Origin: Candidatus Krumholzibacteriota bacterium
Lineage (GTDB): Bacteria; Krumholzibacteriota; Krumholzibacteriia; JAJRXK01
Length of the DNA stretch: 58,584 bases
NCBI GenBank assembly: GCA_024276305.1
Contig: JAJRXK010000034.1
Coordinates: forward strand, 1 to 58,584
Reading direction: 5' to 3'
In this document: positions 7,545-58,322 of the stretch, piece after piece
How positions within the stretch are numbered: the stretch's first letter is position 1
Layout: every line of letters starts with the position of its first letter
The notes under the pieces: generated by a model
Told to the model about the DNA's origin: nothing
Databases searched by the model: none
What the model saw: only the letters and a program-made list of their open reading frames with translations
Made by a program: the position numbers and the translations under genes

Positions 7545-8999
7545 ATGAACCCTTCATCGGTCCGATCCTCATCGTGGTACTCCACCACCGACTCCGACCG
7601 CCTGGCTCGGATTCAATTGAGCCTGGCCGCGATCGCACTCTCGTTGGGCCTGGCCTATGCCCTCCTTCTTCGGCTGCACCTACTGGCCTCCCTTCACCCC
7701 ATTCTCGCTCCTTCGGTCTTCGGCCAGTCCCTTTCCGCCCACGCCCTCTTCTCGTTCTTCTTCTTCGCGCTGGTGGTCGTCCCCTGTGGGGTGGTCCCGC
7801 CGGTGCTTCCCCACCTCGTCCAACAGCCATCTCTGGCCTTCCCGCGGCTGCAGCAGTGGTCGATGCGCCTGCACTTCTTCGCCTTGGCCTCCATGACCCT
7901 TGCGGTCCTCAGCGGAAGCCTCTCCGCCTCGTGGCCCGAGCTCCTGCCGGAGGCAACGGCCCATCCGTGGACGGTCATCTGGGTCGCCATCGCTCTGCAC
8001 CTGCTGGGACTGTGCCTGGTCTGCACTGCCTTGCAGAGCCTGAGCACCATCTCGACTTCGGGCTTCCCATCTCCCACCGCGGCCGCGGTCTGGGGGATCC
8101 TCTGCGGCGCCGTTGCGCAACTCGTGGTCGGGGTCCTGCTGGCCGCACTGGCGATTCTGATCTTCTTCGAAGCCGCTCCTTCGGCCGCGGTCTTCGATGC
8201 CGCCGGAGCTCTGGTCTATTCTCGCTTCTTCCACTTCCTCGAACGCGCCGCCATCGTGGCCGTGCTTCTGCCTTCGGTGGGAATCGGCATGCAGATCGTG
8301 GCGCATCGCGGAGCCCGACGGGTGGCCGGAGGATGGTCCACTGCCCTGGCCATGGCCTCGATCACCGCACTGGGCTTGAGTGGCGGAGGTCTGGAATTGA
8401 TGAATGCCGGGCAATCGGTGGGATGGAGCGTGGTACAGAGCGCCCTCGGTCTCCTGATTCTCGTACCTGCCACCACTCTGGTGACGAATCTCCTCGCCAC
8501 CTTGCACCGGGGGGCCCTCCGGGTGGACGCGGCGCTGCTCTTTGCCCTGAGCCTGATCACCACCGCAGTAGTCGGAGGGTTGGCCGCGATCTTTCTCACC
8601 GACTTGAGCGTCGCCGGGCCCCTCCTCTCCACCGCATTCCGCAGCGCGGTACTCCATTACCTGCTGGGCGGAGTGTCGCTCTTCGCCGTCCTGGCAGTGG
8701 TGTCGGCCCATGCCGACGATCTCCTCGGTCGACCGCTCGAGGAGGGGCGGGCCCGAGTGGCCGCAGCCCTCTGCTTCGCCGGCCTACACCTCGCCTTCCT
8801 GCCCGGACTGTGGGTCGGAAACCGCGGCCTGTGGTTCGGAGAGGCCGAGCTGGCGCCCTCCACTCTGCGATGGGAGAATCTGGCCTCGGGGGGAGCGGCG
8901 GTTCTCTTGGTGGGGATCGCAGCCTTCGTCTTCCTCTCGCTGCGAGCCCGGTTGGACGCCCTCCGGAGCCCCGAGGGGGGTGACTCGCCCCCGCTGTGA
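7545..8999 (+). CDS. Active-site-less haem-copper oxidase subunit I homologue
   Basis: 484 residues, about twelve membrane helices. Homology to CoxA/CtaD is visible in SAHALFSFFFF (helix II), SLAFPRLQQWSMRL (compare DxAFPRLNxxSxWL), VPATTLVTNLLATL (compare VPTGIKxFxWxATL) and VLHYLLGG (helix X). His66 and His371 match the two low-spin haem ligands. The catalytic residues are missing: the HPEVY segment reads FLERAA (about 231-236), the HH pair of helix VII is absent, and the first His of the HFH motif is Val/Leu. CuB and high-spin haem should therefore not bind. It sits between the CuA-less subunit II and ccoI (the stop overlaps the ccoI start). Confidence 0.8.
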   Translation: MNPSSVRSSSWYSTTDSDRLARIQLSLAAIALSLGLAYALLLRLHLLASLHPILAPSVFGQSLSAHALFSFFFFALVVVPCGVVPPVLPHLVQQPSLAFPRLQQWSMRLHFFALASMTLAVLSGSLSASWPELLPEATAHPWTVIWVAIALHLLGLCLVCTALQSLSTISTSGFPSPTAAAVWGILCGAVAQLVVGVLLAALAILIFFEAAPSAAVFDAAGALVYSRFFHFLERAAIVAVLLPSVGIGMQIVAHRGARRVAGGWSTALAMASITALGLSGGGLELMNAGQSVGWSVVQSALGLLILVPATTLVTNLLATLHRGALRVDAALLFALSLITTAVVGGLAAIFLTDLSVAGPLLSTAFRSAVLHYLLGGVSLFAVLAVVSAHADDLLGRPLEEGRARVAAALCFAGLHLAFLPGLWVGNRGLWFGEAELAPSTLRWENLASGGAAVLLVGIAAFVFLSLRARLDALRSPEGGDSPPL

Positions 9000-44189: not shown

Positions 44190-45899
44190 TTGCTCGCGCT
44201 TCCTTTCGATCCGAGCCCGATTCTCGTATTGGCCCTCATTCTGGTGGCGGGCCTGTTCTTTGGCGCGCTCTCGAAGATGGCCCACCTCCCCTCGGTCACC
44301 GGACAGATCCTCGCCGGAGTGCTCCTCGGGCCATCGGTGTTGAAGCTCTTCACGCCAGAGCAGACCAATGGGCTCGTATCCATCACTCACTTCGCGCTGA
44401 GCCTCATCGCGGTCGCAGTGGGCAGCCACCTCCACGTGCGACGCCTCCGCAACGCCAGATTGCGCCTGTTCTCGATGCTCCTGGCCGAATCCACGATTCT
44501 ACCCCTCATCGTCTTCACCTCGGTCTACTTCATCACCGGAGTGCACTGGTCCTTCGCTCTGCTCATCGCCGCTCTCGCGATTTCCACCGCTCCCGCGACG
44601 GTCATGGCCCTCGTCAAGGAGACCCGAGCGAGAGGTGTCTTCGTCAAGACCCTGGTCGCTGCGGTCGCCCTCAACAACATCGCATGCATCAGCGCATTCG
44701 AAATGGCCCACTTGGCCGCTCGGGTGAGCCTGGATCCCACTGCCCAGGCCACGGTGATCGAGGTGCTCCTGGCGCCATTGCGCCAACTCGGCATGGCCAC
44801 GCTCCTCGGGGGAGGAGCCGGCCTCCTGCTCATTCTGATGACGCGCAAAGTCGTTCGATCGGACCTTCTCGCCACCTACAGCCTCGTCGCCATTCTCCTG
44901 ACCACCGGCCTGGCCCAGGCGCTGGGAATCTCTTCGCTTCTGTCCTGCCTCGTTCTGGGAGTCACGCTGGCCAACGTGACTCCGGACAAGGAGGAAATCG
45001 GACATGCCGTCTTCGACAACTTCGAACGAGTGATCTACGCATCCTTCTTCACCCTCGCCGGAACCGAATTGCACCTCGATGCAGCCGTGGCCGGCGGAGC
45101 CATTGCTCTCGTGGCCATTTCGTCTCGCATCGTGGGCAAGATCACCGCTGGTTGGGTCGCGATGAGGCTGGGACGGGCGCCGGTGGCCATCCGCAACTAC
45201 CTGGGAGTAGCCCTCCTCCCTCAGGCCGGGGTCGCGGTGGGCCTGGTCCTCGTCGCCCAGGAGGATCCTGCACTGGCTTCGATTCGCACCTTGCTTCTGG
45301 CCGTGGGACTGAGCGTCGTCGCTGCCAACGAGATCATCGGTCCGCTCATGACCCGGATTGCGTTGGAGCGTTCCGGGGATGCCGGCCGGGATCAACCGCG
45401 TCTCATCGACTTCATCCACGAAGAACACATCACCACTGATCTACGGGGTCCATCGAAGGAAGAGGCCATCCGGCAGCTCGCGGAATTGCTCGTCAGCACC
45501 CACCCCGGCAACCTCGACCTCGACGCGCTGATCGAGAGCACCGTGGAGCGCGAGAGCGATGTCTCGACCTGCGTCGGCGCGGGATTGGCGATTCCCCACG
45601 GCGAGATTCCTCCGGGAAATCCCATCATGGGAGTCATCGGGATCAGCCACGAGGGCTTGCACATCGACACTCCCGACCATCACCCGGTGCACTGCATGGT
45701 CCTGCTCGCCACTCCCAGCGACCAGCGGGACCGCCACCTGGAAGTCCTGGCCACCCTGGCCAAGACCATTGGAACCGACGCGGCCATGCGCTCCCAGCTT
45801 TTTGCGGCGAAGAGCCCGGCTCACGTCTGCGAGATCTTCCGGCAGCAGACTTTCGAGGATCTGAACTACATCCTCGAAGAGGAAGCACTGCCGGTCTGA
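44190..45899 (+). CDS. Cation:proton antiporter fused to a PTS EIIA(Fru/Ntr)-like domain
   Basis: 569 residues. The only possible starts follow the in-frame stop at 44172; the first is TTG 44190. Residues 1-395 form a CPA2/KefB-like transporter with about twelve helices (LPSVTGQILAGVLLGPSVL, ALAISTAPATVMA, NYLGVALLPQAGVAVG). Residues ~400-569 are a PTS EIIA type-2 domain with the phospho-acceptor histidine at 470 (GLAIPHGEI). The fusion suggests that ion transport is tuned by phosphorelay or metabolite state. The ion is unknown. Confidence 0.85.
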   Translation: MLALPFDPSPILVLALILVAGLFFGALSKMAHLPSVTGQILAGVLLGPSVLKLFTPEQTNGLVSITHFALSLIAVAVGSHLHVRRLRNARLRLFSMLLAESTILPLIVFTSVYFITGVHWSFALLIAALAISTAPATVMALVKETRARGVFVKTLVAAVALNNIACISAFEMAHLAARVSLDPTAQATVIEVLLAPLRQLGMATLLGGGAGLLLILMTRKVVRSDLLATYSLVAILLTTGLAQALGISSLLSCLVLGVTLANVTPDKEEIGHAVFDNFERVIYASFFTLAGTELHLDAAVAGGAIALVAISSRIVGKITAGWVAMRLGRAPVAIRNYLGVALLPQAGVAVGLVLVAQEDPALASIRTLLLAVGLSVVAANEIIGPLMTRIALERSGDAGRDQPRLIDFIHEEHITTDLRGPSKEEAIRQLAELLVSTHPGNLDLDALIESTVERESDVSTCVGAGLAIPHGEIPPGNPIMGVIGISHEGLHIDTPDHHPVHCMVLLATPSDQRDRHLEVLATLAKTIGTDAAMRSQLFAAKSPAHVCEIFRQQTFEDLNYILEEEALPV

Positions 45900-46087: not shown

Positions 46088-47236
46088 ATGAGGAACAACC
46101 CTGCGATCACCGCGGCTCGATCCTATCTCAAACAACTTTCGGCGTGGGTCGGCAGGCCCTCCCTTCCGCTTCCGAATCCCCCGGCGGAACTCGGCGAGGG
46201 CCATCTGGTCGAACTGAGTTCGTCCCACCAGATCGCGCCCCTCCTCGATTGGCATCTCGGACCGAGCGAAGAGAGAGCGGACTTGGAGACGAGACTCCCG
46301 CAGTGGACCGAATCCGCTCACCTCGAACGCAAGCACCATGGGGTGGCCAACCTCGTGCTCTTGGAGGCGGTCGAGGACATCGCCTCCCGTTTCGCCTTGC
46401 GCGGAATCGAGTGGCTGGTCTTCAAGGGGCCCTGGCTCGCATGGCGCGCCTACCCGGATCCCTCGACCCGACCCATGGGGGACATCGATCTGTGCATCCA
46501 CGAACACGATTACCCATCCGTCATGGAGATCCTCGCCGAAGTCGGGTATCAGCCGATCGGTCCGATGCCGAGGGATGGAGCCCAAGCCTTGAGCTCAACC
46601 TACTATCGGGAGCAGCTCCGCTTCGTGGCCCCTGGACGACCACCCGTCGAATTGCACTTTCGCATGGTGAACTTCGGACGTCTGCGACCGACCGAGGAAT
46701 GGCTCTGGAATGGCGCCGCGGAGTCGACCTTCGAAGGAGTTCGAGTTCGACATCCGTCGGACGAGGCCATGTTCTTTCACGTGTGTCTGCACACGAATCA
46801 GCACGCCCACCGTACTCTGCGTCTCTTGCACGATGTGCGTTGCACCCGACAGGCGATCGGCCCCGGATTCGACTCGGATGCATTCCTGGAACTCGTCGAT
46901 CACTACCGCTGCCGTTGCGCCGTCTATCACTCCCTCTTACTGGCCACCGAACTCGCGGGAATGGATCCAGAACAACCCCTCATGGACCGGCTGCGCCCTC
47001 ATCAACTGAGATCGCGCATCTATGCCTGCGCATGGGACATCGACCGCATCCGTTCACTGGAAGCGCCTCGTCAGCCCTCTCACCTCGAAGCTCCGCTGTT
47101 CTATTTTCTGGAGGTCGACAGGCCCCTGGACAAGCTGGTCTATGCTATCGCGGTCACCTCCATGCGCGCGAGGCAAGTCCTGCGCGACTCGCGTCATCGA
47201 GTTCTCCGCCGACAACTTCCCGTCGATGCGCGCTGA
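46088..47236 (+). CDS. PF14907-type nucleotidyltransferase family protein
   Basis: 382 residues. The polymerase-beta-like core has FKGPWLAWRAYPDP (KG at 113-114) and RPMGDIDLCIHEHDYP (metal-binding Asp pair at 132 and 134), followed by PPVELHFRM with a further acidic residue. This is the signature of uncharacterised nucleotidyltransferases (NTP_transf_5) that recur in clusters with PqqD and HPr-kinase-like genes. A -10-like TAGTCT lies at 45974-45979. The next gene starts inside its 3' end (11-base overlap). It probably belongs functionally to the convergent operon; the acceptor is unknown. Confidence 0.85.
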   Translation: MRNNPAITAARSYLKQLSAWVGRPSLPLPNPPAELGEGHLVELSSSHQIAPLLDWHLGPSEERADLETRLPQWTESAHLERKHHGVANLVLLEAVEDIASRFALRGIEWLVFKGPWLAWRAYPDPSTRPMGDIDLCIHEHDYPSVMEILAEVGYQPIGPMPRDGAQALSSTYYREQLRFVAPGRPPVELHFRMVNFGRLRPTEEWLWNGAAESTFEGVRVRHPSDEAMFFHVCLHTNQHAHRTLRLLHDVRCTRQAIGPGFDSDAFLELVDHYRCRCAVYHSLLLATELAGMDPEQPLMDRLRPHQLRSRIYACAWDIDRIRSLEAPRQPSHLEAPLFYFLEVDRPLDKLVYAIAVTSMRARQVLRDSRHRVLRRQLPVDAR

Positions 47237-48845
47237 AATCCGCAGGGCTCTGTCTCCGATGGGGATTGCCTGCCTCGCCCTGGCCGGCTTCGCCACCACC
47301 TTCTCCAACGACTTCGTGTACGACGACCTCAACCGAATCGTCCACAATCCCAGGATCAAGAGCTTGGACGGCATTCCCGGGCTGATCCTGACCTCGCACC
47401 GCCCTTTGCGCGACTTCACCTTCAGCTTGGACTATGCGATCTGGGGTCTGCATCCGGCGGGCTGGCACTTGACCAACTCGCTGCTCCATGCCTGCACAGC
47501 GCTGCTTCTCTTCTGCTTTCTCCGCCGAGTTCTGGACCAACCGTTCCTGCCCTTCATGGGAGCCGCCCTGTTTGCAGTTCACCCGGCCGGCGTCGAAGCA
47601 GTGGCCGGGATTTCGAATCGCCAAGAGTCCCTCATGACGATCTGGATTCTGATCGCACTGCTCTTGGTCCGTCGGAAGAGCCGCTGGGCACTGGCCGGAG
47701 CCGTGGCAGCGCTCGCGATGGCCCTCGCGGCAAAGCCCCTGGCCCTGACTGGCCTGCTCATCGTCCCCCTCTACGCCTGGTGGTCCGACGGTCGCTCGCG
47801 GCGCTGGATGGCCCTGGCTGGACTTTCGGCTTCCATCGCCCTCCTAGTGGCCATCTCCACCCTGAAAGCCCTCGGTACCCATTCCTATCTCGCCGCATTG
47901 GATTCCTGGCAGCGAATGGCCCTGAGTTTCTGGTCTCTCACCGAGTACGCGCGGCTCCTGATCTGGCCGGGGCCAGTGGCCGCAGACATCCCGATTCCCG
48001 TGGCGGATTCCGGCTTCGTCCTGCGCGCGACGGTTGGAGTCGCGATTCTTTTCCTCATGGTGTCCAGCCTGCGTCCTTATCTGAGGCACCGGCCCCATGG
48101 GCTTCTGGCCCTCCTCGGTACCGTAACCATGCTTCCGCTGATGAATATCGTCCCCGTGCTCTTTCCCGTCGCGGAACGCTATTTCTACCTGCCGTCGGTC
48201 TTCTTCCTTCCGCTTTCGATTCTGGGAGCTCAGGCATTGGCCCGACGCTTCTGGCCCAACTCATTGCGGGGGCGTACCCCAGCCGTGGCCTTCACTCTCA
48301 TCGCACTCCTCTTTCTCGGCCGAAGCTCGGTGAGAAACCGCGCCTGGAGCACTCCAGAGTCCCTCTGGACTTCAACTCTGTCTTCCCATCCGCGCTCTGC
48401 TGTCGCGCACTACAATCTTGGCACCATCCTCCTCGATGCAGACCGCAAGGATGAGTCCATTGAGCACCTTCTCCATGCCACCTCGTTGCGTCCCGGGCAC
48501 GCTTCGGCCTGGAACAACCTCGGACTGGCGTACTTGGGTATCGATGACGTGGACCGGGCCCGGCGTTCCTTCTCCCGGGCTCTCGACATTCCGAACCGGC
48601 CTCCATCGGTCCTCTTCAATCTCGCGTGTCTCGAGTCCCGCAACGGTCAGCCCGAAGCCGCACTGCAATGGCTTCTGCTTCTCGCGGAAGAACAACCCCT
48701 GGTGCGCTTCCCCCTGCTCACCGATCCAGATCTCGAGGCCTTCCGCAAGTCGGACGCATTCGATCGGCTCCGCCGAGCGCTCTCACCTGGAGACAATCCC
48801 AGAGCTCTCGACGACAATGCTGCAATTCGTTCCTCCGAACCCTAG
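47226..48845 (+). CDS. TMTC-like membrane glycosyltransferase with C-terminal TPR repeats
   Basis: 539 residues from the ATG overlapping the upstream stop. GT-C-type membrane protein: FVYDDLNRIVHNP (acidic pair at about 32-33) in the first loop, HPAGWHLTNSLLHA, LFAVHPAGVEAVAGISNRQ, and about ten helices to residue ~360. The C-terminal ~150 residues hold TPR units (AHYNLGTILLDADRKDESIE, AWNNLGLAYLGIDDVDRARR). It resembles protein O-mannosyltransferase TMTC homologues. It would transfer a lipid-linked sugar to an exported protein. Its 3' end overlaps the convergent ketosynthase gene by 63 bases. Confidence 0.8.
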   Translation: MRAEIRRALSPMGIACLALAGFATTFSNDFVYDDLNRIVHNPRIKSLDGIPGLILTSHRPLRDFTFSLDYAIWGLHPAGWHLTNSLLHACTALLLFCFLRRVLDQPFLPFMGAALFAVHPAGVEAVAGISNRQESLMTIWILIALLLVRRKSRWALAGAVAALAMALAAKPLALTGLLIVPLYAWWSDGRSRRWMALAGLSASIALLVAISTLKALGTHSYLAALDSWQRMALSFWSLTEYARLLIWPGPVAADIPIPVADSGFVLRATVGVAILFLMVSSLRPYLRHRPHGLLALLGTVTMLPLMNIVPVLFPVAERYFYLPSVFFLPLSILGAQALARRFWPNSLRGRTPAVAFTLIALLFLGRSSVRNRAWSTPESLWTSTLSSHPRSAVAHYNLGTILLDADRKDESIEHLLHATSLRPGHASAWNNLGLAYLGIDDVDRARRSFSRALDIPNRPPSVLFNLACLESRNGQPEAALQWLLLLAEEQPLVRFPLLTDPDLEAFRKSDAFDRLRRALSPGDNPRALDDNAAIRSSEP

Positions 48846-50027
48846 GCTGTTGCTCACAAAGCGACGGATGGTCGCATCTCTGGCGAGGTTCGGAACGCAA
48901 TCCAAATCGCATTTTGGATCGGGAACCTCGTAGTTGATGGTCGGAGGCAGAAATCCTGCGCGCATGGCCAGAATCGAAGCGACGACTTCGATTGCACCCG
49001 CCGCCCCCAAGGTATGGCCAATCTGCGATTTGGTGGAACTCACCGGAAGAGTTCGGGCATGATCTCCGAAGACTCGCTTGATCGCATTGGTCTCCGTGCG
49101 ATCGTTGTGACGTGTCCCCGTCCCGTGGGCGTTGAAATAGTCGATCTCCTCCGGACTCACTCCCGCATCCTCGAGTGCCAGCTCGATGGCGCGGGCGGCT
49201 CCGGATCCGGTCGGGTCCGGGGCCGTGATGTGATAGGTGTCGGAACTGATCCCCGTTCCCACAACCGAGGCCAAATGCGGCGACGCATCGACTTCGTCCT
49301 CTCGATCCAGAATCAAGACCGCCGCCGCTTCCCCCAGTAGAAGTCCGTCGCGACGAAGGTCGAAGGGACGAATGCGATTGAGTTTCGAGGAATTCCTCAT
49401 GGCCCCGAACCCACCCGCGTTCAGGGGAGTCAAGGCGTCGAAACCCCCAGCGATCACTCGATCCACGCGGCCGCTGAGCAGCAACTCGCGCGCACGCGCG
49501 ATGGCGATCGCACCCGATGCGCACGCGTTCGAAACGACGTGAATCCCCCCCCTTGACCCAATCGCGTGAGCGAGTGCGGCAGCCGACGCTTGCATCGGAA
49601 GTTCGAGGAGAAGGCTCGCTCGTCCACGGCGGCGCCGACTCCGTTCGCGATAGTAGCGGTATCCGCTCAAGAATCCGCCGGAGCAAGTACCCAGTACGAT
49701 GGCCGTTCGATCGAAGGATGTCGTCCCCTCGGAGAGGCCCGCCATCTCCAGAGCTTCTTCCGCCGCACACAACACCATTCGGGTTGCGCGGTCCAACGGA
49801 CGACGGAACCCGGCCGCGAGCGCAGGGGCTGGGATCTCGTCCCGAATCTGACCTCCGTATTGGCTTCGGAATTCGCGACAATCGAAGGCATCGATGGGGC
49901 CGACCCCATTGAGCCCATGGCGCAAGCCCTGGCACATCGACTGCGAATCCATTCCGAGGGCGCTCACTACCCCCACTCCTCGGACCGCCACTGACCGACG
50001 GCGGCCCGGCAATTCAGTGCGACTCAT
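48783..50027 (-). CDS. Beta-ketoacyl synthase (FabF/KSalpha-like) with intact active site
   Basis: 414 residues from the ATG overlapping the transacylase stop (ATGA). Thiolase-fold ketosynthase with the full Cys-His-His triad: Cys169 (SNACASGA), His301 (NAHGTGT) and His338 (SQIGHTLGAAG), plus the C-terminal SLGFGGTNCSI loop. It catalyses decarboxylative condensation on ACP. Last gene of the operon; pairs naturally with the inactive ketosynthase two genes upstream. It differs from housekeeping FabF in context. Confidence 0.9.
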   Translation of the reverse strand: MSRTELPGRRRSVAVRGVGVVSALGMDSQSMCQGLRHGLNGVGPIDAFDCREFRSQYGGQIRDEIPAPALAAGFRRPLDRATRMVLCAAEEALEMAGLSEGTTSFDRTAIVLGTCSGGFLSGYRYYRERSRRRRGRASLLLELPMQASAAALAHAIGSRGGIHVVSNACASGAIAIARARELLLSGRVDRVIAGGFDALTPLNAGGFGAMRNSSKLNRIRPFDLRRDGLLLGEAAAVLILDREDEVDASPHLASVVGTGISSDTYHITAPDPTGSGAARAIELALEDAGVSPEEIDYFNAHGTGTRHNDRTETNAIKRVFGDHARTLPVSSTKSQIGHTLGAAGAIEVVASILAMRAGFLPPTINYEVPDPKCDLDCVPNLARDATIRRFVSNSLGFGGTNCSIVVESSGIVSR

Positions 50028-51007
50028 GGATGGCGCCTTTCTTCCGCAAGCTGAGAGGACTCGCCGCCGGAGGCTCCTTCCACCCGCAGAAGCTTTTCGA
50101 CTGCCGCAGGCCGATCGGTCCAATGAACCTTCCAACGCCGATGCCATCGCAGCGAGAGTCCCGACAGAACCCTACCGGGCCCAACCTCCGCCAACACCCC
50201 GCAACCACGTCGATCCAGCTCCTTCAGAACCAGATCCCAGCGAACGGGATGAAGGATCTGATCCTTCATCCTTCGATGGATTCGCGAGGGTTCGGACATC
50301 AGTTCACCGGTCATGGACGACACCCAGGGAATTCGGGGGATCCGGAATTCGATGCCCGCCAGGCGCGCGGTGAACTTCTCCGCAGCGACTCTCATCAACG
50401 GGGAATGAAATGCGCCGTGAACGTCGAGGGGTCGAAACGCTGCGCCACTTCCCTTGAGCTTCTGACGAAGAGTGGCAAGTTCCGAGATTCCCCCGGACAA
50501 GACCACCGAACAACGGCCATTGACATTCGCCACCAGACTCGAGGACCCGCTCTCGTGAAGGCCAGTCTCTTGCAACTCGTCCAGGGAGAGCCCACTCACC
50601 GCCACCATTCCTCCCGCTTCGCGTTCGCAGTCCTCGCGCAACCAACGACCGCGATCCCGCACCAACGTCAGACCCTCAGCAAACCCCAGAGATCCCGACA
50701 CGACTGCCGCCGTCCACTCTCCTAGGCTGTGTCCGCTCACCACCGAAGGGACCATGCCGTGTTCCTCCAGGACCTTCGCGGTCGCGATGCTCTGAGTGAA
50801 GATCACCAAGTGAGCGACGTCGGTCTGGACCAGTCGATCGAGAGTTCCGGATCCGACGAGATCGATGAGATCCACTCCGGCCAGATCACTGGCCTCTTGG
50901 TAGACCTGCTTCACGCTGGGCCAACGCTTCAGCAATGCGGTCCCCATTCCTACTTCGATCGATCCCTGGCCGGGGAAGCAGAATGCGATTCCCATGGGAG
51001 CCCTCAC
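50024..51007 (-). CDS. Malonyl-CoA:ACP transacylase-like protein
   Basis: 327 residues from a GTG overlapping the upstream stop (GTGA); an ATG at 50995 (MGIAFCFPGQGS) is also plausible. Acyltransferase fold with FCFPGQGS, catalytic Ser94 in SGHSLGEW, the substrate Arg in VRDRGRW and His201 in GAFHSPLM. It loads an extender (malonyl) on the carrier domain. Coupling on both sides and the absence of a separate fabD/acpP set indicate a dedicated, cluster-specific enzyme. Confidence 0.9.
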   Translation of the reverse strand: MRAPMGIAFCFPGQGSIEVGMGTALLKRWPSVKQVYQEASDLAGVDLIDLVGSGTLDRLVQTDVAHLVIFTQSIATAKVLEEHGMVPSVVSGHSLGEWTAAVVSGSLGFAEGLTLVRDRGRWLREDCEREAGGMVAVSGLSLDELQETGLHESGSSSLVANVNGRCSVVLSGGISELATLRQKLKGSGAAFRPLDVHGAFHSPLMRVAAEKFTARLAGIEFRIPRIPWVSSMTGELMSEPSRIHRRMKDQILHPVRWDLVLKELDRRGCGVLAEVGPGRVLSGLSLRWHRRWKVHWTDRPAAVEKLLRVEGASGGESSQLAEERRHP

Positions 51008-52266
51008 TCCCCCCCCTCCCCCGAGGATCCAAGGTTCAACACCACCGCGGCATTCAGTCCTCCTCTCGAGGACTCATTCAGAATCACCAGACTCCCATCG
51101 CAGACCCCAGCCCCGGTCGATCGCCCGCTTTCGAAGATCGGATCGACCGGACTCCATCCCGGCGGAGTGAGTTCGTCCCCCCTGCGATGACCCTCGAGAA
51201 CCAATCCAAGGGACGCGATCACGCTCGCAGATCCCATCTCTCCCCAGGAAGCCTTCGGACACCACACCGCCACCGATGAGAGCCGGTCTCCGAAGCAGAT
51301 CTCCAGACCCTTGGCCTCCGCAGCATCTGCTTCCATGTTTCCAGCCGCACTCGCCCACACCGTCGCCACCCCCATGCCGTCGGCCGCCGCCTCTCGCAGC
51401 GCTTCTCGGATCGCCAGAGCGAAGCCCTGCCCGTCGGGCGCATTCCCCCAGTAGCTTCCTCCGTCATTGGCGAATCCCACGCCTGTCACTCGGAGCACTT
51501 CATTCTCCATCGATGCCGGCAGGTCTTCGCTCCGCCTCAGTAGAACACACGCCGCCCCCTCGGATACGACGGCCCCGTTGCGATCCACCGCGAACGGTCT
51601 CGATCCTTCTGGAGAATCGTCTTGCGGAGAAAGGACACGAAGGTCGGACATGGCTCGATAGTAGCCGGGTGACAGAGTATCGACGCCTGCGACCAGGGCG
51701 AAGTCGATCTCACCCAAGCCGAGGGACGCGATGGCCGCATCGAGTGCCCCAACTGCCGAGACATTTCCGTTGCTGAAGGTGACGCAAGGCCCGGAGATCT
51801 TGTGTTGGATGGAAAAATGTCCCAGCGGGGCGTTGAGAACAGTTTGCTGAAACTTCAAGGGGTCGACTTCGCGAGGACGTCCCTCCGAGATCGCGGTCGA
51901 GATGGCTTCGACACAGTCCAACGGACCGCGCGACGTGCCCAGAAAAAGCCCCAGCCGATCGGGATCGACCTCGAGTCGACGGCCCATCAACCCCGCATCG
52001 GTCAAACAGCGCTGGGCAACCGCCGCGAAGATCTGATCGTGCGGAGGCAGACGCAGGAAACGCCGTGAGGGCAGCCATGGCCGAATTCCGTCCAGATCCA
52101 CTCGACCCGCAAGGGATGATCGGCATCCCTCTGACGACAGCCCCGGAACCTCTTCGAATGCATTGTCCCCTCGCCGAACCTTTTCGAGCACCGCAGCCAC
52201 GTCGTGACCAAGAGGAGTGACCATCGCCGCACAGCAAATCGCCACTCGTTGCATTCGCATGACCAT
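51004..52266 (-). CDS. Ketosynthase homologue without catalytic residues (chain-length-factor-like)
   Basis: 420 residues, ATG with AGGAG five bases upstream. Ketosynthase fold (VTPLGHDV, DRLGLFLGTSRGP, FALVAGVDTLSPGYY) but the nucleophile position reads SNGNVSA (Asn168 for Cys), the AHGTGT segment reads ASAAGNM and the GH of KxxxGH is GE (Glu343). All three catalytic residues are gone. KSbeta/CLF partners in type II polyketide and aryl polyene systems are similarly inactive and pair with an active KS, which here is the gene at 48783-50027. Confidence 0.85.
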   Translation of the reverse strand: MVMRMQRVAICCAAMVTPLGHDVAAVLEKVRRGDNAFEEVPGLSSEGCRSSLAGRVDLDGIRPWLPSRRFLRLPPHDQIFAAVAQRCLTDAGLMGRRLEVDPDRLGLFLGTSRGPLDCVEAISTAISEGRPREVDPLKFQQTVLNAPLGHFSIQHKISGPCVTFSNGNVSAVGALDAAIASLGLGEIDFALVAGVDTLSPGYYRAMSDLRVLSPQDDSPEGSRPFAVDRNGAVVSEGAACVLLRRSEDLPASMENEVLRVTGVGFANDGGSYWGNAPDGQGFALAIREALREAAADGMGVATVWASAAGNMEADAAEAKGLEICFGDRLSSVAVWCPKASWGEMGSASVIASLGLVLEGHRRGDELTPPGWSPVDPIFESGRSTGAGVCDGSLVILNESSRGGLNAAVVLNLGSSGEGGE

Positions 52267-52289: not shown

Positions 52290-53672
52290 TCAGAGATTGA
52301 GGTTGTCGGTGACCGTGCGCGTGACGAACAGAGGCGCGGACCGTGACCACGCCTCCACCACCTGCCCCTCGGTCTCGACCGAGAATGGAACCAGGGGCCA
52401 TGCGTATTCCTGATCGACATAGGCCCAGGAAACGGTGAGCCCCAACGTCGGTGAGTAGGCTGAAGACTTCACCTTCCCGACCGTTCGGTCTCCAATCCCG
52501 ATGCTCGCACCTTGTTGGAGTACCGAGCCATCGGAGTACGTCAGAAGAATCGCTCGCCGGCCGCTGCCTCGCCTCTCGGCCTCGAGCGCGTCGCGCCCTC
52601 GGAAATCCTCACGCGAGAATTGCACCGCCCACTCCACTCCAATCGAGAAGGGGCTGGATCCTTCGTCCAGAAAGGCCCGTCGCGGTGACTTCATTTCCAT
52701 CGCGAGAACTCGGCGCAGCTCCTTCTCGGAAGGAGGAATCGTTCGAGCCATACTGCTCTTCGCAATCTCCTCCTCCAGCGCGCCGATGGCATTCCGTGGC
52801 CCCAGAACTCGGAAGTCGAACTCGCCACTGTCCCCATAACGGCAGATGCTCACTTGCACACCCGCATGGTCGAGCTCCATTCCCTGACAGTAGGCAAGTC
52901 GCAAGAGATCCGAGCTGAAGTAGTCGGTGACGAAGTCCTGAGCCTCAGGACCCGATACCGAGAGCAGGTCATGGGTCTCGGTCTCGGACCGCAATTCGAC
53001 CTCCTGCCCGTCCTGCCTCCCACACTCCAGCAGATCGCCAATCCCCTGATCGACGTCGCCATCCCCCAATACCAAGTAGTCCGAGGACCGCGCGTAGATC
53101 CACACGATCGCAGCAATCTTGCCCGCATCGTCCAACATGAGGGACTGCAGAAGATCGCCCACCGCCAGCTCACTGACATTCCCGGTCACCGATCGCGCCA
53201 GACAATCCAGGGCATCTCGACCCGACACGCTCACTCTCTCGGTGGGCGACATCCGACCGACCAGCAATCCATGACGGGCCGAACGATAGGCATTCGGCTC
53301 GCGTTCGCCGCTCTCCGGAGCCTCGTCCACGCCAATGGCTTCGCGAAGGCGGCCTGCCGTTTCGCGAATCGCAGGCCATGCCTCGGTCTTTTCCAGAATG
53401 TAGTCCACGATCGCATTCACCGAACGGAACAGGCTGATTTCGGTATCTGCGACTTCCACTCCGAATCGTTGCTCGATGCCCGCCGCAAGCCCCAGAGCAT
53501 CCACCGAGTCCAGACCCAGCCCGGATCCGAAGAGCGGCGCGTCATTGCCGATGAGCTCAGGCGCTTCTTCCAGCAACAACGCATCGATGATGCACTCCTT
53601 CACCTCGTTCGTGAGCGATCGTCTCGCCTCCACGTAGGAGTTGATCTCCTCGATTCGAATCACCATGTCCAT
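52290..53672 (-). CDS. Acyl carrier protein domain fused to a GcvT/YgfZ-like domain
   Basis: 460 residues. Residues ~15-95 are an ACP: LFGSGLGLDSVDAL with the phosphopantetheine serine at 56. After a linker (about 96-128) comes a GcvT/YgfZ-superfamily region: VSGRDALDCLARSVTGNVSEL, a barrel segment with FSREDFRGRDALEAERRGSG, and the C-terminal KVKSSAYSPTLGLTVSWAYV. The catalytic Asp pair of aminomethyltransferases (GGxxDD) reads GKIAAI, and the YgfZ KGCYxGQE motif is absent, so the chemistry is uncertain. It is the only ACP in the operon. AGGAGA precedes the ATG. Confidence 0.85.
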   Translation of the reverse strand: MDMVIRIEEINSYVEARRSLTNEVKECIIDALLLEEAPELIGNDAPLFGSGLGLDSVDALGLAAGIEQRFGVEVADTEISLFRSVNAIVDYILEKTEAWPAIRETAGRLREAIGVDEAPESGEREPNAYRSARHGLLVGRMSPTERVSVSGRDALDCLARSVTGNVSELAVGDLLQSLMLDDAGKIAAIVWIYARSSDYLVLGDGDVDQGIGDLLECGRQDGQEVELRSETETHDLLSVSGPEAQDFVTDYFSSDLLRLAYCQGMELDHAGVQVSICRYGDSGEFDFRVLGPRNAIGALEEEIAKSSMARTIPPSEKELRRVLAMEMKSPRRAFLDEGSSPFSIGVEWAVQFSREDFRGRDALEAERRGSGRRAILLTYSDGSVLQQGASIGIGDRTVGKVKSSAYSPTLGLTVSWAYVDQEYAWPLVPFSVETEGQVVEAWSRSAPLFVTRTVTDNLNL

Positions 53673-53715: not shown

Positions 53716-54486
53716 CTACAGACCGCCGGTGATGTCCACGCAACTCCCCGTCATGAACGACGAACGATCAGACAGAAGAAAGCAAATGAGGTTCGCCACT
53801 TCCTCTGCCCGTCCGAGACGTCCCAGAGCAGTGTGAGCAACCACATCGTCGAGAATCCTGCGCGGAATCTGCTTCGTCATGTCGGTCTCGATAAGACCCA
53901 CAACCAGAGCGTTGACGCGAATGTCATAGCGTCCGACCTCGTGCGCCAATGACTTCGTGAGGGCCAACACCGCACCCTTGGATGCGGCGTAGTTCACCTG
54001 ACCGGCGCGTCCTCGCGTCGCCGAGGTCGACGACAGGTTTACGATCGAGCCTCGTCGCTTGGCAGCCATGGGTTTGAGGACTCGACGACAGAGTCGAAAG
54101 GTGGCCCTGGCGTTCACATCCATGACTTCATCCCATTGCTCATCTCGCATCATGGAGAGGTAGATGTCGCTCGTGACTCCAGCGTTGTTGACCAAACCAT
54201 CGATCTGGCCAAACTTCTCTCGCGCCTGATTCACCAGTGCGATGATCACGTCGTGATCGGTCACGCTCCCGCGCAGAAGCACCAAGTGATCCGCACGATC
54301 GCCCACCGAACGCGCAAGCGATTCGGCTGATTCGTCGTCACTCCTGTAGTTCCCCACGACATTGGCCCCGCTGGCGATACACATCTGAGCCGTCGCCCGA
54401 CCGATACCTCGACTCGCTCCCGTGATGATGATCGTCTTCCCTTCGAGATCATTCGAAGGTGCATTCGCGAAGGAGGGTTCATTCAT
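53716..54486 (-). CDS. FabG-like 3-oxoacyl-ACP reductase
   Basis: 256 residues from the ATG that overlaps the dehydratase stop by 8 bases. SDR with TGASRGIG (23-30), NNAG (100-103), Ser152/153, Tyr166 and Lys170 (NYAASKGAV) and the FabG-type C-terminus FMTGSCVDITGGL. It reduces the beta-keto group formed by the ketosynthase using NADPH. A 43-base gap follows before the ACP-GcvT gene. Confidence 0.9.
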   Translation of the reverse strand: MNEPSFANAPSNDLEGKTIIITGASRGIGRATAQMCIASGANVVGNYRSDDESAESLARSVGDRADHLVLLRGSVTDHDVIIALVNQAREKFGQIDGLVNNAGVTSDIYLSMMRDEQWDEVMDVNARATFRLCRRVLKPMAAKRRGSIVNLSSTSATRGRAGQVNYAASKGAVLALTKSLAHEVGRYDIRVNALVVGLIETDMTKQIPRRILDDVVAHTALGRLGRAEEVANLICFLLSDRSSFMTGSCVDITGGL

Positions 54487-54979
54487 GCGATTCGGCCTCC
54501 GCGACCGGAGAATCATCGCTGCTTCGCAGTAGTGCTCGGAATGAAACCGTCGCGATTCGGTGGTCGTCGACGAAAGCGTCCACCTTGTAACGCACCAGGT
54601 CTCCATCTCTTCGCACCAGTCGAGCCTCCATCAGGATCGTGTCGCCCGGAGTCGCCGGTTGAACGAAAGTGCATTCGGCCGAAAGCAGGTAGCTCTCGTC
54701 GTAGTTCTGATCGAGAGGATCGGGCTCACCTTCAGCGGGTCCCATGAAGTACCCGCACTGGGCCATCGCCTCCATCAGGAGCGATCCCGGATAGATGGCC
54801 CGGGCGGGGTAGTGCCCCAGAAACACGGGGTCGCTCTGGGTGAGATTCTTCAGCGCCGAACAGCGCCCCGGACCACGGGACAGCACTCGATCAATCAGCA
54901 AGAGGGGATAACGCAGAGGGATTCTCTGGCGAATCCCGTCCGCATCCATCACTGGGTTCGAGCGCAGGTCGTCGCTCAC
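54479..54979 (-). CDS. FabZ/FabA-like 3-hydroxyacyl-ACP dehydratase
   Basis: 166 residues from a GTG overlapping the upstream stop (GTGA). Hot-dog fold with RYPLLLIDRVL, catalytic His56 in GHYPARAIYPG and Glu70 in LLMEAMAQCG, as in FabZ. It removes water from 3-hydroxyacyl-ACP. With KS, KR and DH but no enoyl reductase in the operon, the expected chain would keep double bonds unless an ER acts in trans. Confidence 0.9.
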   Translation of the reverse strand: MSDDLRSNPVMDADGIRQRIPLRYPLLLIDRVLSRGPGRCSALKNLTQSDPVFLGHYPARAIYPGSLLMEAMAQCGYFMGPAEGEPDPLDQNYDESYLLSAECTFVQPATPGDTILMEARLVRRDGDLVRYKVDAFVDDHRIATVSFRALLRSSDDSPVAEAESHE

Positions 54980-55857
54980 GCTGAACTCTCGGCGGTCCGG
55001 GGTTGGCCAAGTTCGGTCAGAAGCAGTGCAGCCGTGCGGCCTCGATCCGACGGGCACAAACACACCACGCGAACATGGCGAGCAAGCTCCTCGCAGCGCG
55101 ACAGAAAGTCGACATCCGGCAGGTCTTCCGAGGGTCGCGCCTCTGCCAGGATCATGGCACAGGCCTGAGCCACACTCCGAACCGGCGAAACGCTGGGAGT
55201 CGCAGCTCTCTCTCCCACCATCACGATCGTGTCGATCGAGCATCCCTGACCACCACGATCCCGGTGGACGAGCGCGGGACGACGGAATCGAACGGTTTTC
55301 CGGTCAGGTTCTCGATGGGGTTGGCCAATGCTCGACGGCTGCAAGAGCGGGTGCTTGCTGCTTTCGACTCCTACCGCCTTGGCCATCATGGCAAGCCGCA
55401 GGGAAGGGCCCTCGATCCAGGCGTAGCGATCACTCGCATACTCTGCACCTCGGCGACAGAGCTCCAACAGCAGCTGAGACCTACGATCGTAGTCTCCACC
55501 GATCAGAAGAGTGGCACGATTCTCGACAACCACCGACGATGCGTTGAGCCACAAGCCATCGGACAAGCAGCGGAGAGACCGGCTCAGAATGTCCTGTTCC
55601 AATCCCTCCAGAATCGACGGCAAGAAGGCCGTCACTCGGACCAGGCGCTCTCCAAGGCACAAGACATGTCGTCGTCCGTCATGCATGCGCCGATCGACGG
55701 AAGCTTCATAGACGTGGTCCCCTGTCGCGTCGACATCGTCGCTCTCGTCCCAGAACAGTTCGCGCACGCGATCGAGCAGACTCGTGTCGTCGCAAACGAC
55801 CTCGAAGCTCTGGTGCAGGAAGCGGAATCCGTAACGTCCCTCGATACCCTGGCTCAC
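54976..55857 (-). CDS. Degenerate HPr-kinase-like protein
   Basis: 293 residues from a GTG overlapping the pqqD-like stop (GTGA). The central region ENRATLLIGGDYDRRSQLLLE followed by CRRGAEYASDRYAWIEGPSL aligns with the HprK C-terminal P-loop (G-x-x-x-x-G-K-S/T) and the RGAxYxSDD segment, but GKS is RRS and the conserved histidine before the P-loop (LHxxxV) is Asn105. ATP binding by the usual route is therefore doubtful. Such paired HprK-like proteins next to PqqD are known from peptide-maturation clusters. Function here unknown. Confidence 0.65.
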   Translation of the reverse strand: MSQGIEGRYGFRFLHQSFEVVCDDTSLLDRVRELFWDESDDVDATGDHVYEASVDRRMHDGRRHVLCLGERLVRVTAFLPSILEGLEQDILSRSLRCLSDGLWLNASSVVVENRATLLIGGDYDRRSQLLLELCRRGAEYASDRYAWIEGPSLRLAMMAKAVGVESSKHPLLQPSSIGQPHREPDRKTVRFRRPALVHRDRGGQGCSIDTIVMVGERAATPSVSPVRSVAQACAMILAEARPSEDLPDVDFLSRCEELARHVRVVCLCPSDRGRTAALLLTELGQPRTAESSA

Positions 55858-56129
55858 GGCAGCACCTCGATCACTCCGGCACTCTGAAGCTGCTCGAGAG
55901 TCGCATCGAGTTCCCTGTTCAGGCGATCCGCTTGGACCGAAGGATAGGTCTCGACGAGCGCCTCCAAGATCTTGTCGCGCGTCTGGCCTCCCTCGCACGA
56001 GTACCAGATCACGGCCGCGGAAGTGTTGAGGTGAACGCTCGCGCCGGAACTGCGGAGATAGATCACCAATTCGTCCCCGAGTTCACGGGCGAGTACGTTC
56101 TCGGTCGTCTTGTACTGAGGATTGGGCAT
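55854..56129 (-). CDS. PqqD-like peptide chaperone
   Basis: 91 residues: NVLARELGDELVIYL, the central helix HLNTSAAVIWYSCEGGQT and a C-terminal helix with LEQLQSAGVIEV are the PqqD fold. PqqD-like proteins bind precursor peptides and present them to maturation enzymes (RiPP recognition element). The start ATG has no visible Shine-Dalgarno sequence and sits 17 bases after a strong hairpin, suggesting low translation relative to the Tat-protein gene. The stop overlaps the following kinase-like gene. Confidence 0.87.
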   Translation of the reverse strand: MPNPQYKTTENVLARELGDELVIYLRSSGASVHLNTSAAVIWYSCEGGQTRDKILEALVETYPSVQADRLNRELDATLEQLQSAGVIEVLP

Positions 56130-56146
56130 GGAACAGGATGTGGTTG

Positions 56147-56172
56147 GCCAACGCCCCCGTAGGGGCGTTGGC
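56147..56172 (-). terminator. Perfect 11-bp hairpin between the Tat-protein gene and pqqD
   Basis: GCCAACGCCCC and GGGGCGTTGGC form an uninterrupted 11-bp stem with a 4-base loop, 24 bases after the stop of the Tat-signal gene and 17 bases before the PqqD start. No T-tract follows, so it is better read as a partial terminator, processing site or 3' stabiliser than as a full terminator. It would give more transcript of the Tat gene than of the biosynthetic genes. Confidence 0.6.
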
Positions 56173-56195
56173 TCATGGGCTCTTGAAATGAGGGC

Positions 56196-56888
56196 CTAGC
56201 GCCGCGCCAGAGCGGGGCGAAGATCAGAGATGAACAGCCCGCTGATGTCGATGGGATTCCCTTGGGGCATCACGGAAAGCGCGATGTCGACATCTCGGAT
56301 CACACATTTGTCTCCCGTGGTCTGCTCGGCAGCCCTTCCTCCTGACAGCCCAGCGCTCCCAGTGCTCGTCGCGCAAGCAGTCGAACGGAGTTCCATGGGA
56401 ACCTGAGCTGCAGCGGTGTACACACCCGTATGAAGATCCAAGGTGCCAACAGTGGTACCAGTGAAGATCTCCGCCGTGAGTTGACCACAGGAGATCCCCG
56501 CCGGACCGAGAGGATCCGAGCTGAGTGACTGCATCACGCCCGCCATCTGGACGGTGGCCACATTCGCAGTAGCCGTGGGCAGAAGATCGATCACGCCGGA
56601 CACGCCGAACTCGACCGGAATCGTCGGGCCACCCGACACTGCGAAGTTCAAGACGAACGGCGTTCCGCCCGACATCTGATAACTCGCGGGCAGAGAGATG
56701 TTGAAGACCGATCCGCCCGGCGACAACTTGGACTGTCCGGCGTATACCTTCACCGAAGGTGTGAGATAGAGCAGCGCCGCGCCGCTGATGGCAACTGTCT
56801 TCTTGATGAACGAGCGTCGGGAGTCTCCGGTCGGAGCACCTTGACGTGGCTCTTCGGGCGTCTCGGGAGAGCGAGGTTCCTTGCTCAT
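56196..56888 (-). CDS. Tat-exported protein of unknown function, probable substrate of the cluster
   Basis: 230 residues. A hydrophilic N-terminus leads into a twin-arginine signal, SRRSFIKK (Arg24-Arg25) and hydrophobic VAISGAALLYL, followed by TPSVKVYAG where processing would occur. The mature ~180 residues are Ser/Thr/Gly/Ala-rich and beta-predicted, with three cysteines (SCGQ, ACAT, KCVI) and a basic end (ALARR). No family recognised. The gene has its own promoter, a ~138-base leader and an exceptional ribosome binding site. This pattern fits the abundant product that the other genes modify. Confidence 0.75.
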   Translation of the reverse strand: MSKEPRSPETPEEPRQGAPTGDSRRSFIKKTVAISGAALLYLTPSVKVYAGQSKLSPGGSVFNISLPASYQMSGGTPFVLNFAVSGGPTIPVEFGVSGVIDLLPTATANVATVQMAGVMQSLSSDPLGPAGISCGQLTAEIFTGTTVGTLDLHTGVYTAAAQVPMELRSTACATSTGSAGLSGGRAAEQTTGDKCVIRDVDIALSVMPQGNPIDISGLFISDLRPALARR

Positions 56889-56896
56889 CGTGTACT

Positions 56897-56905
56897 ACCT
56901 CCTTT
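56897..56905 (-). promoter_or_regulatory. Near-perfect Shine-Dalgarno of the Tat-protein gene
   Basis: AAAGGAGGT on the minus strand, eight bases before the ATG at 56888, fully complementary to the core of the 16S anti-SD. It is the strongest site seen in the window, in contrast to the downstream pqqD gene, which has none. Confidence 0.7.
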
Positions 56906-57033
56906 GAGTCATCGCAGGTTGCGTTGACCATTGCATTGCGGAGTGGGAAAACCAGCTCTCCGAAAGCGCGAAGGAGTGGGCGGGCAGGAGTTGCGTTCAA
57001 GGCCGCAGAGAGCACTGTCTTGTCAGCCGAAGA

Positions 57034-57062
57034 ACTGTAGCAGAACATCGTGTCGGGATCAA
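57034..57062 (-). promoter_or_regulatory. Promoter upstream of the Tat-protein gene
   Basis: On the minus strand TTGATC (57057-57062) and TACAGT (57034-57039) are 17 bases apart and the -10 is extended (TGCTACAGT). Start would be near 57027, giving a leader of about 138 bases. It lies inside the 209-base gap after the HprK-like gene and could drive the Tat-pqqD-fab genes independently. Confidence 0.55.
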
Positions 57063-57097
57063 GCTCGGAGCCTGTTCGCCCAACCTTCGCCCGGAGT

Positions 57098-57952
57098 TCA
57101 CCCCACGACTTCGTCCACCGCTCGCAGGAATCCGGTGCTATTGGCATAGCGCAGCCAATAGGATCGCACCGATTCGGCCACGTTACAGCCCAGCTCGAAG
57201 GCCAATTGCGAGTCGATCGCACTTCGGGCACTCCCCGAAACGATCGCCCGGTGGGCATCCCCAACACTCGCATTCTTCAAGCGGGTCGGCGCAGCGGGAT
57301 CGAAGCTCAATTCGATCAGCGTTGTCGGCGTGGTCGCGACTTCCGTCCATTTCGACCTCAGGCTTGGCGGCAAAAGCGCCCACGACCGTCGCCCGATCCT
57401 CAGAGCCGATGAAGTGTCGATTCTCAGCGCGGATACCGAACCATCCCGGAGAAAGAGGCGGCGCGGATATGGGTGAATCTGGCCTGTCTCGACCTGAATC
57501 GCGATGACTTCGTCGGAGTAGAGCTCCCAGCCATGCTGAAGCAAGAGCGCAGAACTGGTACTCTTGCCCGCATGCGTATCGCCCAGGAGCATGAGCGTCG
57601 TCGATCCCTTTCGGACACAAGCTCCATGCAGGACGAGGAATCTCTCCGAGACACTCACCGCCCAGTTGGTCAGACATCCCGCAATCCGCGCCAGGTCGGC
57701 CTCGTCCACGACTTCGCCGATGCGCTCATCGTCGCAAACCACGCGCCAACCATCCCATGACGCCGCAGTGGGGGTGGGCCGAGCGATCTCCAGAGCGATC
57801 CGCGGGGAGCGAAAGGAGGTCATCTGGGAATCCGGACGTGGCCCCGAGAACATCTGCCGCAGCTTCTCGGAGATCCATGGTCCCGGACCGTCGATCTCGA
57901 ATCGACAATCGAGAAGGTCGATCTCGGTCACGTGGCCATCCACGTCAATCAT
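57098..57952 (-). CDS. HPr-kinase-like protein with intact P-loop
   Basis: 284 residues from the ATG that overlaps the upstream stop by 8 bases. The HprK C-terminal-like kinase core has LHGACVRKG (His109), the P-loop LLGDTHAGKSTS (Lys130, Ser131) and GWELYSDEVIAI (Asp147). In PqqD-containing peptide clusters such kinases accompany PF14907 nucleotidyltransferases; no HPr or other PTS gene is adjacent. Phosphorylation of the Tat protein, a peptide or a small molecule is possible. Confidence 0.82.
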   Translation of the reverse strand: MIDVDGHVTEIDLLDCRFEIDGPGPWISEKLRQMFSGPRPDSQMTSFRSPRIALEIARPTPTAASWDGWRVVCDDERIGEVVDEADLARIAGCLTNWAVSVSERFLVLHGACVRKGSTTLMLLGDTHAGKSTSSALLLQHGWELYSDEVIAIQVETGQIHPYPRRLFLRDGSVSALRIDTSSALRIGRRSWALLPPSLRSKWTEVATTPTTLIELSFDPAAPTRLKNASVGDAHRAIVSGSARSAIDSQLAFELGCNVAESVRSYWLRYANSTGFLRAVDEVVG

Positions 57953-58322
57953 TCCGGAATCGCTCAGGCGGCGAATCGTCCTCGGAGCCGGAACTCTTGC
58001 GCCGGGACGCGCTGAGTCCCCACAAGATCCATCCGGCGGGGAAAAGTCCCACGGGGAACAGGCCCAGAGAGAAAATACCGGCGCTGAAGACCCCGATCGA
58101 GAACACTCCGGACGACACGATCCCGCAGGAAAAGATCCCACTGCTGTAGATTCCCAGAGAGAATTCACCCGCCGCGATGACTCCCATCACGAACTCACCC
58201 GCCGCGAAGTATCCGCGGGCGAGGTCTCCGTGGTGGAAGGGGTCATCGACGAACAGCACGCCGCCGAGAACGAGCAGGGATGCCACCACGAGTATCGCCA
58301 ATGCCCATCTGTGCGTCACCAT
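57945..58322 (-). CDS. Membrane-anchored pentapeptide-like repeat protein
   Basis: 125 residues from MVTHRWALAI (GGAGG just upstream; GTG one codon later is possible). One membrane helix (about 6-24) precedes about twelve tandem five-residue units of the form G-x-F/I-x-x (GEFSL GIYSS GIFSC GIVSS GVFSI), then GWILWGLSASRRK and an acidic end. The repeat period suggests a right-handed beta-helix or a glycine-zipper membrane segment. Head of the operon; its function is not recognised. Confidence 0.7.
   Translation of the reverse strand: MVTHRWALAILVVASLLVLGGVLFVDDPFHHGDLARGYFAAGEFVMGVIAAGEFSLGIYSSGIFSCGIVSSGVFSIGVFSAGIFSLGLFPVGLFPAGWILWGLSASRRKSSGSEDDSPPERFRND

What the first reader, a model, noticed from the sequence alone, without database searches (positions are those of the whole stretch)
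52290..53672. ACP fused to a GcvT/YgfZ-like domain
A carrier domain with a clear phosphopantetheine serine (LGLDSVDAL) is followed by a folate-binding-type barrel lacking both the GcvT catalytic Asp pair and the YgfZ motif. Tethering the acyl chain to such a domain suggests either folate-dependent one-carbon chemistry on an ACP-bound substrate or a novel acyl-binding use of the fold. I know of no characterised example.
Basis: partly seen in the sequence, partly recalled or inferred. Interest (0 to 1): 0.82.

Follow-up and report, generated by a model that had tools for sequence, protein, structure and literature searches.

The report
Carrier protein fused to CylF-like domain
In one bacterium, two neighbouring genes of a polyene-lipid-making operon (an acyl carrier protein and a GcvT-shaped partner resembling the poorly understood CylF of group B Streptococcus pigment operons) are joined into one protein, which suggests that the partner works on chains held by the carrier protein rather than on folate.

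Summary
On the minus strand at 53672-52290 there is one 460-aa ORF: an acyl carrier protein (Ser56 in GLDSVDAL), a ~30-residue linker, and a complete GcvT fold that lacks the catalytic Asp pair and the YgfZ motif. It sits in a six-gene operon FabZ-FabG-[ACP::GcvT]-CLF-AT-KS, a type II polyene FAS/PKS. The same core, with ACP and GcvT-like protein as separate genes, recurs in Enterobacterales (375 of 5,426 E. coli genomes), Paraburkholderia, Desulfobacterota and Priestia; ACP lies directly before the GcvT-like gene in 22 of 23 loci. These proteins form a clade apart from GcvT/DMGDH. They match in kind the CylF of group B Streptococcus granadaene operons, whose role is unresolved. I found no second fusion in about 1,200 genomes and the other collections searched. 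Pterin-site residues are lost across nearly the whole family; the fusion and its closest relative have also lost the catalytic Asp. I favour a GcvT-fold accessory domain that docks the ACP arm and acts on or holds the ACP-bound polyene chain without folate. The fusion is Rosetta-stone evidence against the published ammonia-supply idea for CylF. The family and operon assignment is strong; the mechanism is inferred.

The parts
52290..53672 (-). ACP::CylF-like (GcvT-fold) fusion protein, 460 aa
   Evidence: start ATG at 53672 with AGGAGAG just upstream
53388..53672 (-). Acyl carrier protein domain, residues 1-95; phosphopantetheine Ser56 at 53505-53507
   Evidence: PP-binding E 7.4e-10; 43% identity to the ACP of G440
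53295..53387 (-). Linker, residues about 96-126; no stop in any of the three frames
   Evidence: pLDDT under 50 for residues 106-125
52317..53294 (-). GcvT-fold (CylF-like) domain, residues about 127-452; catalytic Asp position = Ile189 (53106-53108)
   Evidence: GCV_T and GCV_T_C; AF2 model and Foldseek; site table
54479..54949 (-). FabZ-like 3-hydroxyacyl-ACP dehydratase (start estimated)
   Evidence: FabA-like E 4.8e-15, FabZ E 1e-26; start
53716..54486 (-). FabG-like 3-oxoacyl-ACP reductase (start estimated)
   Evidence: adh_short_C2 E 7.7e-64, TIGR01830 E 1.8e-74; start
51004..52266 (-). KS-like chain-length-factor homologue; active-site Cys replaced by Asn (FSNGNVS), both His lost
   Evidence: ketoacyl-synt E 9e-26; site alignment; start
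50024..51007 (-). FabD-like ACP S-malonyltransferase
   Evidence: Acyl_transf_1 E 1.2e-30, fabD E 4.6e-62
48783..50027 (-). Ketosynthase with Cys-His-His intact (NACASG, AHGTGT, IGHTLG); start estimated
   Evidence: fabF E 8.1e-107; site alignment; start

Best explanation
This is a gene fusion of two operon partners, an ACP and a CylF-like protein, in a cyl-like type II FAS/PKS operon that (KS-CLF, AT, KR, DH, no ER) should build an ACP-bound polyene. The GcvT fold evolved to accept a thiol-bearing swinging arm (dihydrolipoyl-lysine) from a small carrier, the H-protein. In this clade the carrier is an ACP with a phosphopantetheine arm, and the old folate/catalytic pocket has been remodelled. 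The domain most likely docks the ACP and takes the arm and its growing or finished polyene chain into that cavity, either to shield and present it to the KS-CLF or release enzyme, or (in lineages that keep the Asp) to catalyse a folate-independent step on it. In the fused protein this works in cis. Shown: the domains, fold, operon, conserved neighbourhood, separate clade and residue losses. Inferred: polyene product, ACP docking, chain binding, no folate.
For: Domain and fold. Operon FabZ-FabG-ACP::CylF-CLF-AT-KS with a KS-CLF pair and no enoyl reductase seen. The same core in relatives, ACP from 4 bp overlapping to 60 bp upstream of the CylF-like gene in 22 of 23 loci (Priestia has FabZ between). 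Closest relative G440 (L047) has FabG-ACP-CylF-[FeeM-type N-acyltransferase]-CLF-AT-KS. The CylF-like clade is separate from GcvT/DMGDH-type proteins (100/99), with the fusion next to G440 (99/96). Pterin-site positions lost: T. maritima E195 is not Glu in 23 of 24 relatives and Arg in the fusion; N112 is Glu in 23 of 24; Y188 is Lys in 21 of 24; the catalytic D96 is kept in 22 of 24 but Ile in the fusion and G440. The genome has its own canonical GcvT elsewhere, so glycine cleavage is covered.
Against: No bound structure or assay. Residue roles come from general knowledge of T-proteins; no open paper was found. Most relatives keep Tyr83 and Asp96, which looks like retained catalysis, so 'holding only' may be wrong for them. 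L048 keeps both the Asp and the pterin Glu. The model has no confident ACP placement (no ACP rows in the alignment), so docking is untested. The Streptococcus CylF sequence itself was not compared.
Confidence: 0.5

Rival explanations
1. Folate-dependent one-carbon transfer (or removal) on an ACP-bound substrate.
For: The fold is that of THF enzymes; Arg278, Gly280, Glu284 and Arg320 match conserved GcvT positions; most CylF-like relatives keep the Tyr and Asp.
Against: The fusion has lost the positions of the catalytic Asp, Tyr83, Tyr188 and the pterin Glu; the pterin Glu is lost in 23 of 24 relatives. No folate-linked gene was seen next to it in the operon.
Confidence: 0.1
2. [quoted passage not shown]
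Against: GcvT releases ammonia only together with P- and H-proteins (general knowledge). Conserved adjacency to ACP, the ACP fusion, and loss of the catalytic Asp in the fusion do not fit. No gcvP or gcvH was seen in the operon here.
Confidence: 0.05
3. Decayed, non-functional pseudoenzyme tail: the fusion is a lineage-specific accident and the GcvT half does nothing beyond stability.
For: Only one fusion found; long branch; catalytic and pterin positions lost.
Against: Full-length open frame, well-predicted complete fold, structural motif RxGxxGE kept, and the separate G440 protein shares the Asp-to-Ile change while keeping the gene.
Confidence: 0.15
4. Sequencing or assembly error joined two genes.
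For: Single draft assembly of 119 contigs, and no second example.
Against: No stop in any frame of the linker, so an indel cannot explain it; a ~30-residue coding-like linker and no clear internal start for the second half.
Confidence: 0.05

Closest known systems
CylF with AcpC of group B Streptococcus granadaene (cyl) operons and Gram-positive homologues (PMC6985545)
   Same: GcvT-like aminomethyltransferase-family protein in an operon with ACP, FabG, FabZ, malonyltransferase and KS; role there also unresolved
   Different: Here fused to the ACP; catalytic Asp lost; no CylE or ABC transporter seen beside it; the paper lists Gram-positives and a chloroflexus, not this phylum. CylF itself was not sequence-compared here
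FabG-FabZ-ACP-aminomethyltransferase-KS/CLF operons of Enterobacterales, Paraburkholderia and Desulfatitalea (e.g. E. coli NZ_CP027437.1)
   Same: Same gene core and order; members of the same clade
   Different: ACP and GcvT-like protein are separate; KS and CLF fused; Asp96 and Tyr83 kept; often linked to a Lol-type ABC transporter/LolA and a two-partner secretion pair
Glycine-cleavage T-protein (GcvT), e.g. 1woo
   Same: Whole fold (TMt 0.82); partner protein carries a swinging arm
   Different: Catalytic Asp and pterin Glu absent; carrier is ACP, not H-protein; canonical GcvT is elsewhere in the genome
YgfZ / IBA57
   Same: Same fold superfamily (1nrk TMt 0.70)
   Different: YgfZ motif absent; operon context unrelated to Fe-S assembly
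Aryl polyene / type II PKS KS-CLF systems
   Same: KS plus Cys-less CLF, KR, DH, ACP
   Different: Adds the GcvT-fold domain fused to the ACP

Membership tests
CylF-like clade of FAS/PKS operons | GCV_T fold grouping with the operon-borne proteins rather than with GcvT/DMGDH-type proteins | tested here: met
   Tree: all CylF-like rows plus the fusion on one side at 100/99, long branches noted; the A4 profile gives the fusion 345 bits against 177 for the genome's GcvT (the fusion is itself a row of A4)
CylF-like clade of FAS/PKS operons | Operon with ACP, FabG, FabZ, malonyltransferase and KS | tested here: met
Granadaene (cyl) operon proper | CylE acyltransferase and CylA/B ABC transporter in the operon | tested here: not met
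   Neither seen beside the operon within 48.7-58.6 kb; no FeeM-type match over cut-off in the genome. CylE itself was not searched for with a model, and the contig ends at 58584
Granadaene (cyl) operon proper | Ornithine-rhamno-polyene product | not testable with these tools
   Needs chemistry
GcvT aminomethyltransferase | Catalytic Asp (T. maritima D96; the equivalent was mutated in 3a8k D97N and 3gsi D552A by their PDB titles) | tested here: not met
   Ile189
GcvT aminomethyltransferase | Pterin-binding Glu (T. maritima E195) | tested here: not met
   Arg288
GcvT aminomethyltransferase | Overall T-protein fold | tested here: met
YgfZ/IBA57 | KGC(Y/F)xGQE motif | tested here: not met
   RYGDSGEFDFR at the equivalent stretch
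Acyl carrier protein | PP-binding domain with the phosphopantetheine Ser in a D-S motif | tested here: met
   PF00550 E 7.4e-10; GLDSVDAL, Ser56
Type II KS-CLF | Active KS (Cys-His-His) next to a Cys-less partner | tested here: met

The most novel reading that the evidence does not exclude
The CylF-like clade is a branch of the GcvT superfamily that switched carrier, from lipoyl H-protein to phosphopantetheinyl ACP, and now does folate-free chemistry or chain handling on polyene-ACP; the fusion is covalent evidence of that partnership and would explain the long-unresolved role of CylF.
Probability: 0.35. Interest if true: 0.72.

Novelty: new variant of a known kind. Interest (0 to 1): 0.5.

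Why it matters
CylF is described as universally conserved in granadaene operons, yet its role was called unresolved and then guessed to be ammonia supply (PMC6985545). A natural ACP::CylF-like fusion, plus ACP-CylF adjacency across phyla, points to action on the ACP-bound chain, and gives a single-polypeptide construct for testing it. It also indicates that such operons are widespread in Gram-negatives, including about 7% of the complete E. coli genomes held. If confirmed, it would be a GcvT-fold protein using ACP as its carrier.

Tried and rejected
Plus-strand reading: stops throughout. Other fusions: none in 80 own-phylum genomes, 395 + 258 + 17 genomes of the Desulfatitalea phylum and of two classes in it (partly overlapping), 398 of the Paraburkholderia phylum sample, plasmids, or 24 other loci with a CylF-like gene; viral contigs gave nothing. 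The Pseudomonadota search rang in no genome at the strict cut-off, so it only bears on close fusions. The 529-aa 'open frame' in Paraburkholderia contains stop codons between ACP and CylF and is not a fusion. FeeM-type acyltransferase in the own genome: only sub-threshold matches. Literature searches for an ACP-GcvT fusion, or for GcvT in type II PKS clusters, found none; the flavoaffinin and cispentacin papers were checked and their main texts do not mention GcvT.

Full report
What is there. The finding lies on the minus strand. The ORF 53672..52290 encodes 460 aa with a good ribosome-binding site. Pfam finds PP-binding (residues 24-92), GCV_T (141-349) and GCV_T_C (372-446), all above cut-off. 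The phosphopantetheine serine is Ser56 in GLDSVDAL. An AlphaFold2 model built from relatives has high confidence over the GcvT half (blocks mostly 85-97), and Foldseek ranks T-proteins first (1woo TMt 0.82). The ACP half is poorly modelled because no ACP rows were in the alignment, so the relative placement of the domains is not known.

Is the fusion real? The linker (about residues 96-126) has no stop in any frame, so a single indel cannot have merged two genes; its codon-position composition is coding-like. A wrongly read stop codon remains possible. The assembly has 119 contigs, and the window is a whole contig of 58,584 bases.

The operon. All on the minus strand: FabZ, FabG, ACP::GcvT, a KS-like protein without the active-site Cys (Asn) or the two His, FabD-type acyltransferase, and an intact KS. 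This is a KS-CLF type II system with reductase and dehydratase and no enoyl reductase seen, the set expected for a polyene chain. The product is inferred, not shown.

Relatives. tblastn on plasmids, one scan of GTDB genomes and genome searches found the same core in Enterobacterales, Paraburkholderia, Desulfatitalea, Priestia, and two more genomes of the Desulfatitalea phylum, G440 and G292. In E. coli it is present in 375 of 5,426 complete genomes; in the example read it lies by a tRNA-Ser gene and ycdU, next to a two-partner secretion pair, a Lol-like ABC transporter and a LolA-like protein. ACP and the GcvT-like protein are separate everywhere else, with ACP directly upstream in 22 of 23 loci, at -4 to 60 bp; in Priestia FabZ sits between. 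The closest relative, G440, has FabG-ACP-CylF-like-FeeM-type N-acyltransferase-CLF-AT-KS. In the own phylum (80 genomes) only this genome has the gene; the other profile matches score like GcvT.

Family placement. A maximum-likelihood tree puts the fusion and all operon-borne proteins on one side of a 100/99 branch, apart from ten GcvT/DMGDH-type proteins; the fusion pairs with G440 (99/96), though both are long branches and the tool warns that such joins may be false. The best-documented protein of this kind is CylF of group B Streptococcus granadaene operons. It is universally conserved there; its role is called previously unresolved and is proposed to be ammonia supply for ornithine (PMC6985545). 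cylF mutants are reported to have milder effects than acpC, cylZ or cylE mutants (PMC6920887). I could not compare the streptococcal sequence, so the CylF link rests on family annotation and operon content.

Active site. In T. maritima numbering: the catalytic D96 is Asp in 22 of 24 relatives, Glu in Priestia, Ile in G440 and Ile in the fusion. Y83 is Tyr in 21 of 24 and Gln in the fusion. N112 is Glu in 23 of 24 and Asp in the fusion. Y188 is Lys in 21 of 24 and Asp in the fusion. E195 is Glu in only 1 of 24 and Arg in the fusion. R185, G187 and E191 are kept in all. Roles of these residues are from general knowledge; PDB titles (3a8k D97N, 3gsi D552A) support the Asp. So the pterin site is eroded in nearly the whole clade, while most members keep Asp and Tyr with a new Glu and Lys: a remodelled pocket, and in the fusion lineage a further loss.

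Mechanism. GcvT accepts a thiol-bearing arm from H-protein (general knowledge). ACP also presents a thiol-bearing arm. I infer that the clade swapped carrier, and that the domain docks ACP and takes the arm and chain into the old cavity, for holding or presenting it or for a folate-free reaction. The fusion places this in cis. The ammonia proposal fits poorly with an ACP fusion and with loss of the Asp. The folate option is unlikely for this protein, less certainly so for Asp-keeping relatives.

Limits. Actinomycetota, Bacillota chromosomes, Acidobacteriota and others were not sampled by whole-genome search for fusions. The genome scan missed G440 and G292, so its recall is limited. No statement here about function is experimental.

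Noticed in passing
window 46088-47236 (+), 54976-58168 (-): The polyene operon is flanked by parts resembling the HPr-rel-A set: NTP_transf_5 nucleotidyltransferase (46088-47236), a PqqD-family protein (55854-56129), an HprK-related kinase (57098-58168), a further protein that looks HprK-like (54976-55998, no significant Pfam match), and a possible Tat-signal protein (56196-56888).
   Followed up: no
L010:12376-26185 (E. coli NZ_CP027437.1) and 374 other E. coli chromosomes: A FabG-FabZ-ACP-aminomethyltransferase-KS operon with two-partner secretion genes and a Lol-like transporter sits by a tRNA-Ser gene and ycdU; its ACP-aminomethyltransferase part is in about 7% of complete E. coli genomes. 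No paper describing it was found in the searches run.
   Followed up: partly
L047 (G440) 7683-9149: A FeeM-type N-acyl amino acid synthase domain lies inside the closest relative's operon, suggesting an N-acyl amino acid product there.
   Followed up: partly
window 51004-52266: CLF partner has Asn at the active-site Cys; homologous partners in relatives have Asn, Glu, Asp or Trp there.
   Followed up: yes
window 44190-45899 (+): Na/H exchanger fused to a PTS EIIA type-2 domain.
   Followed up: no
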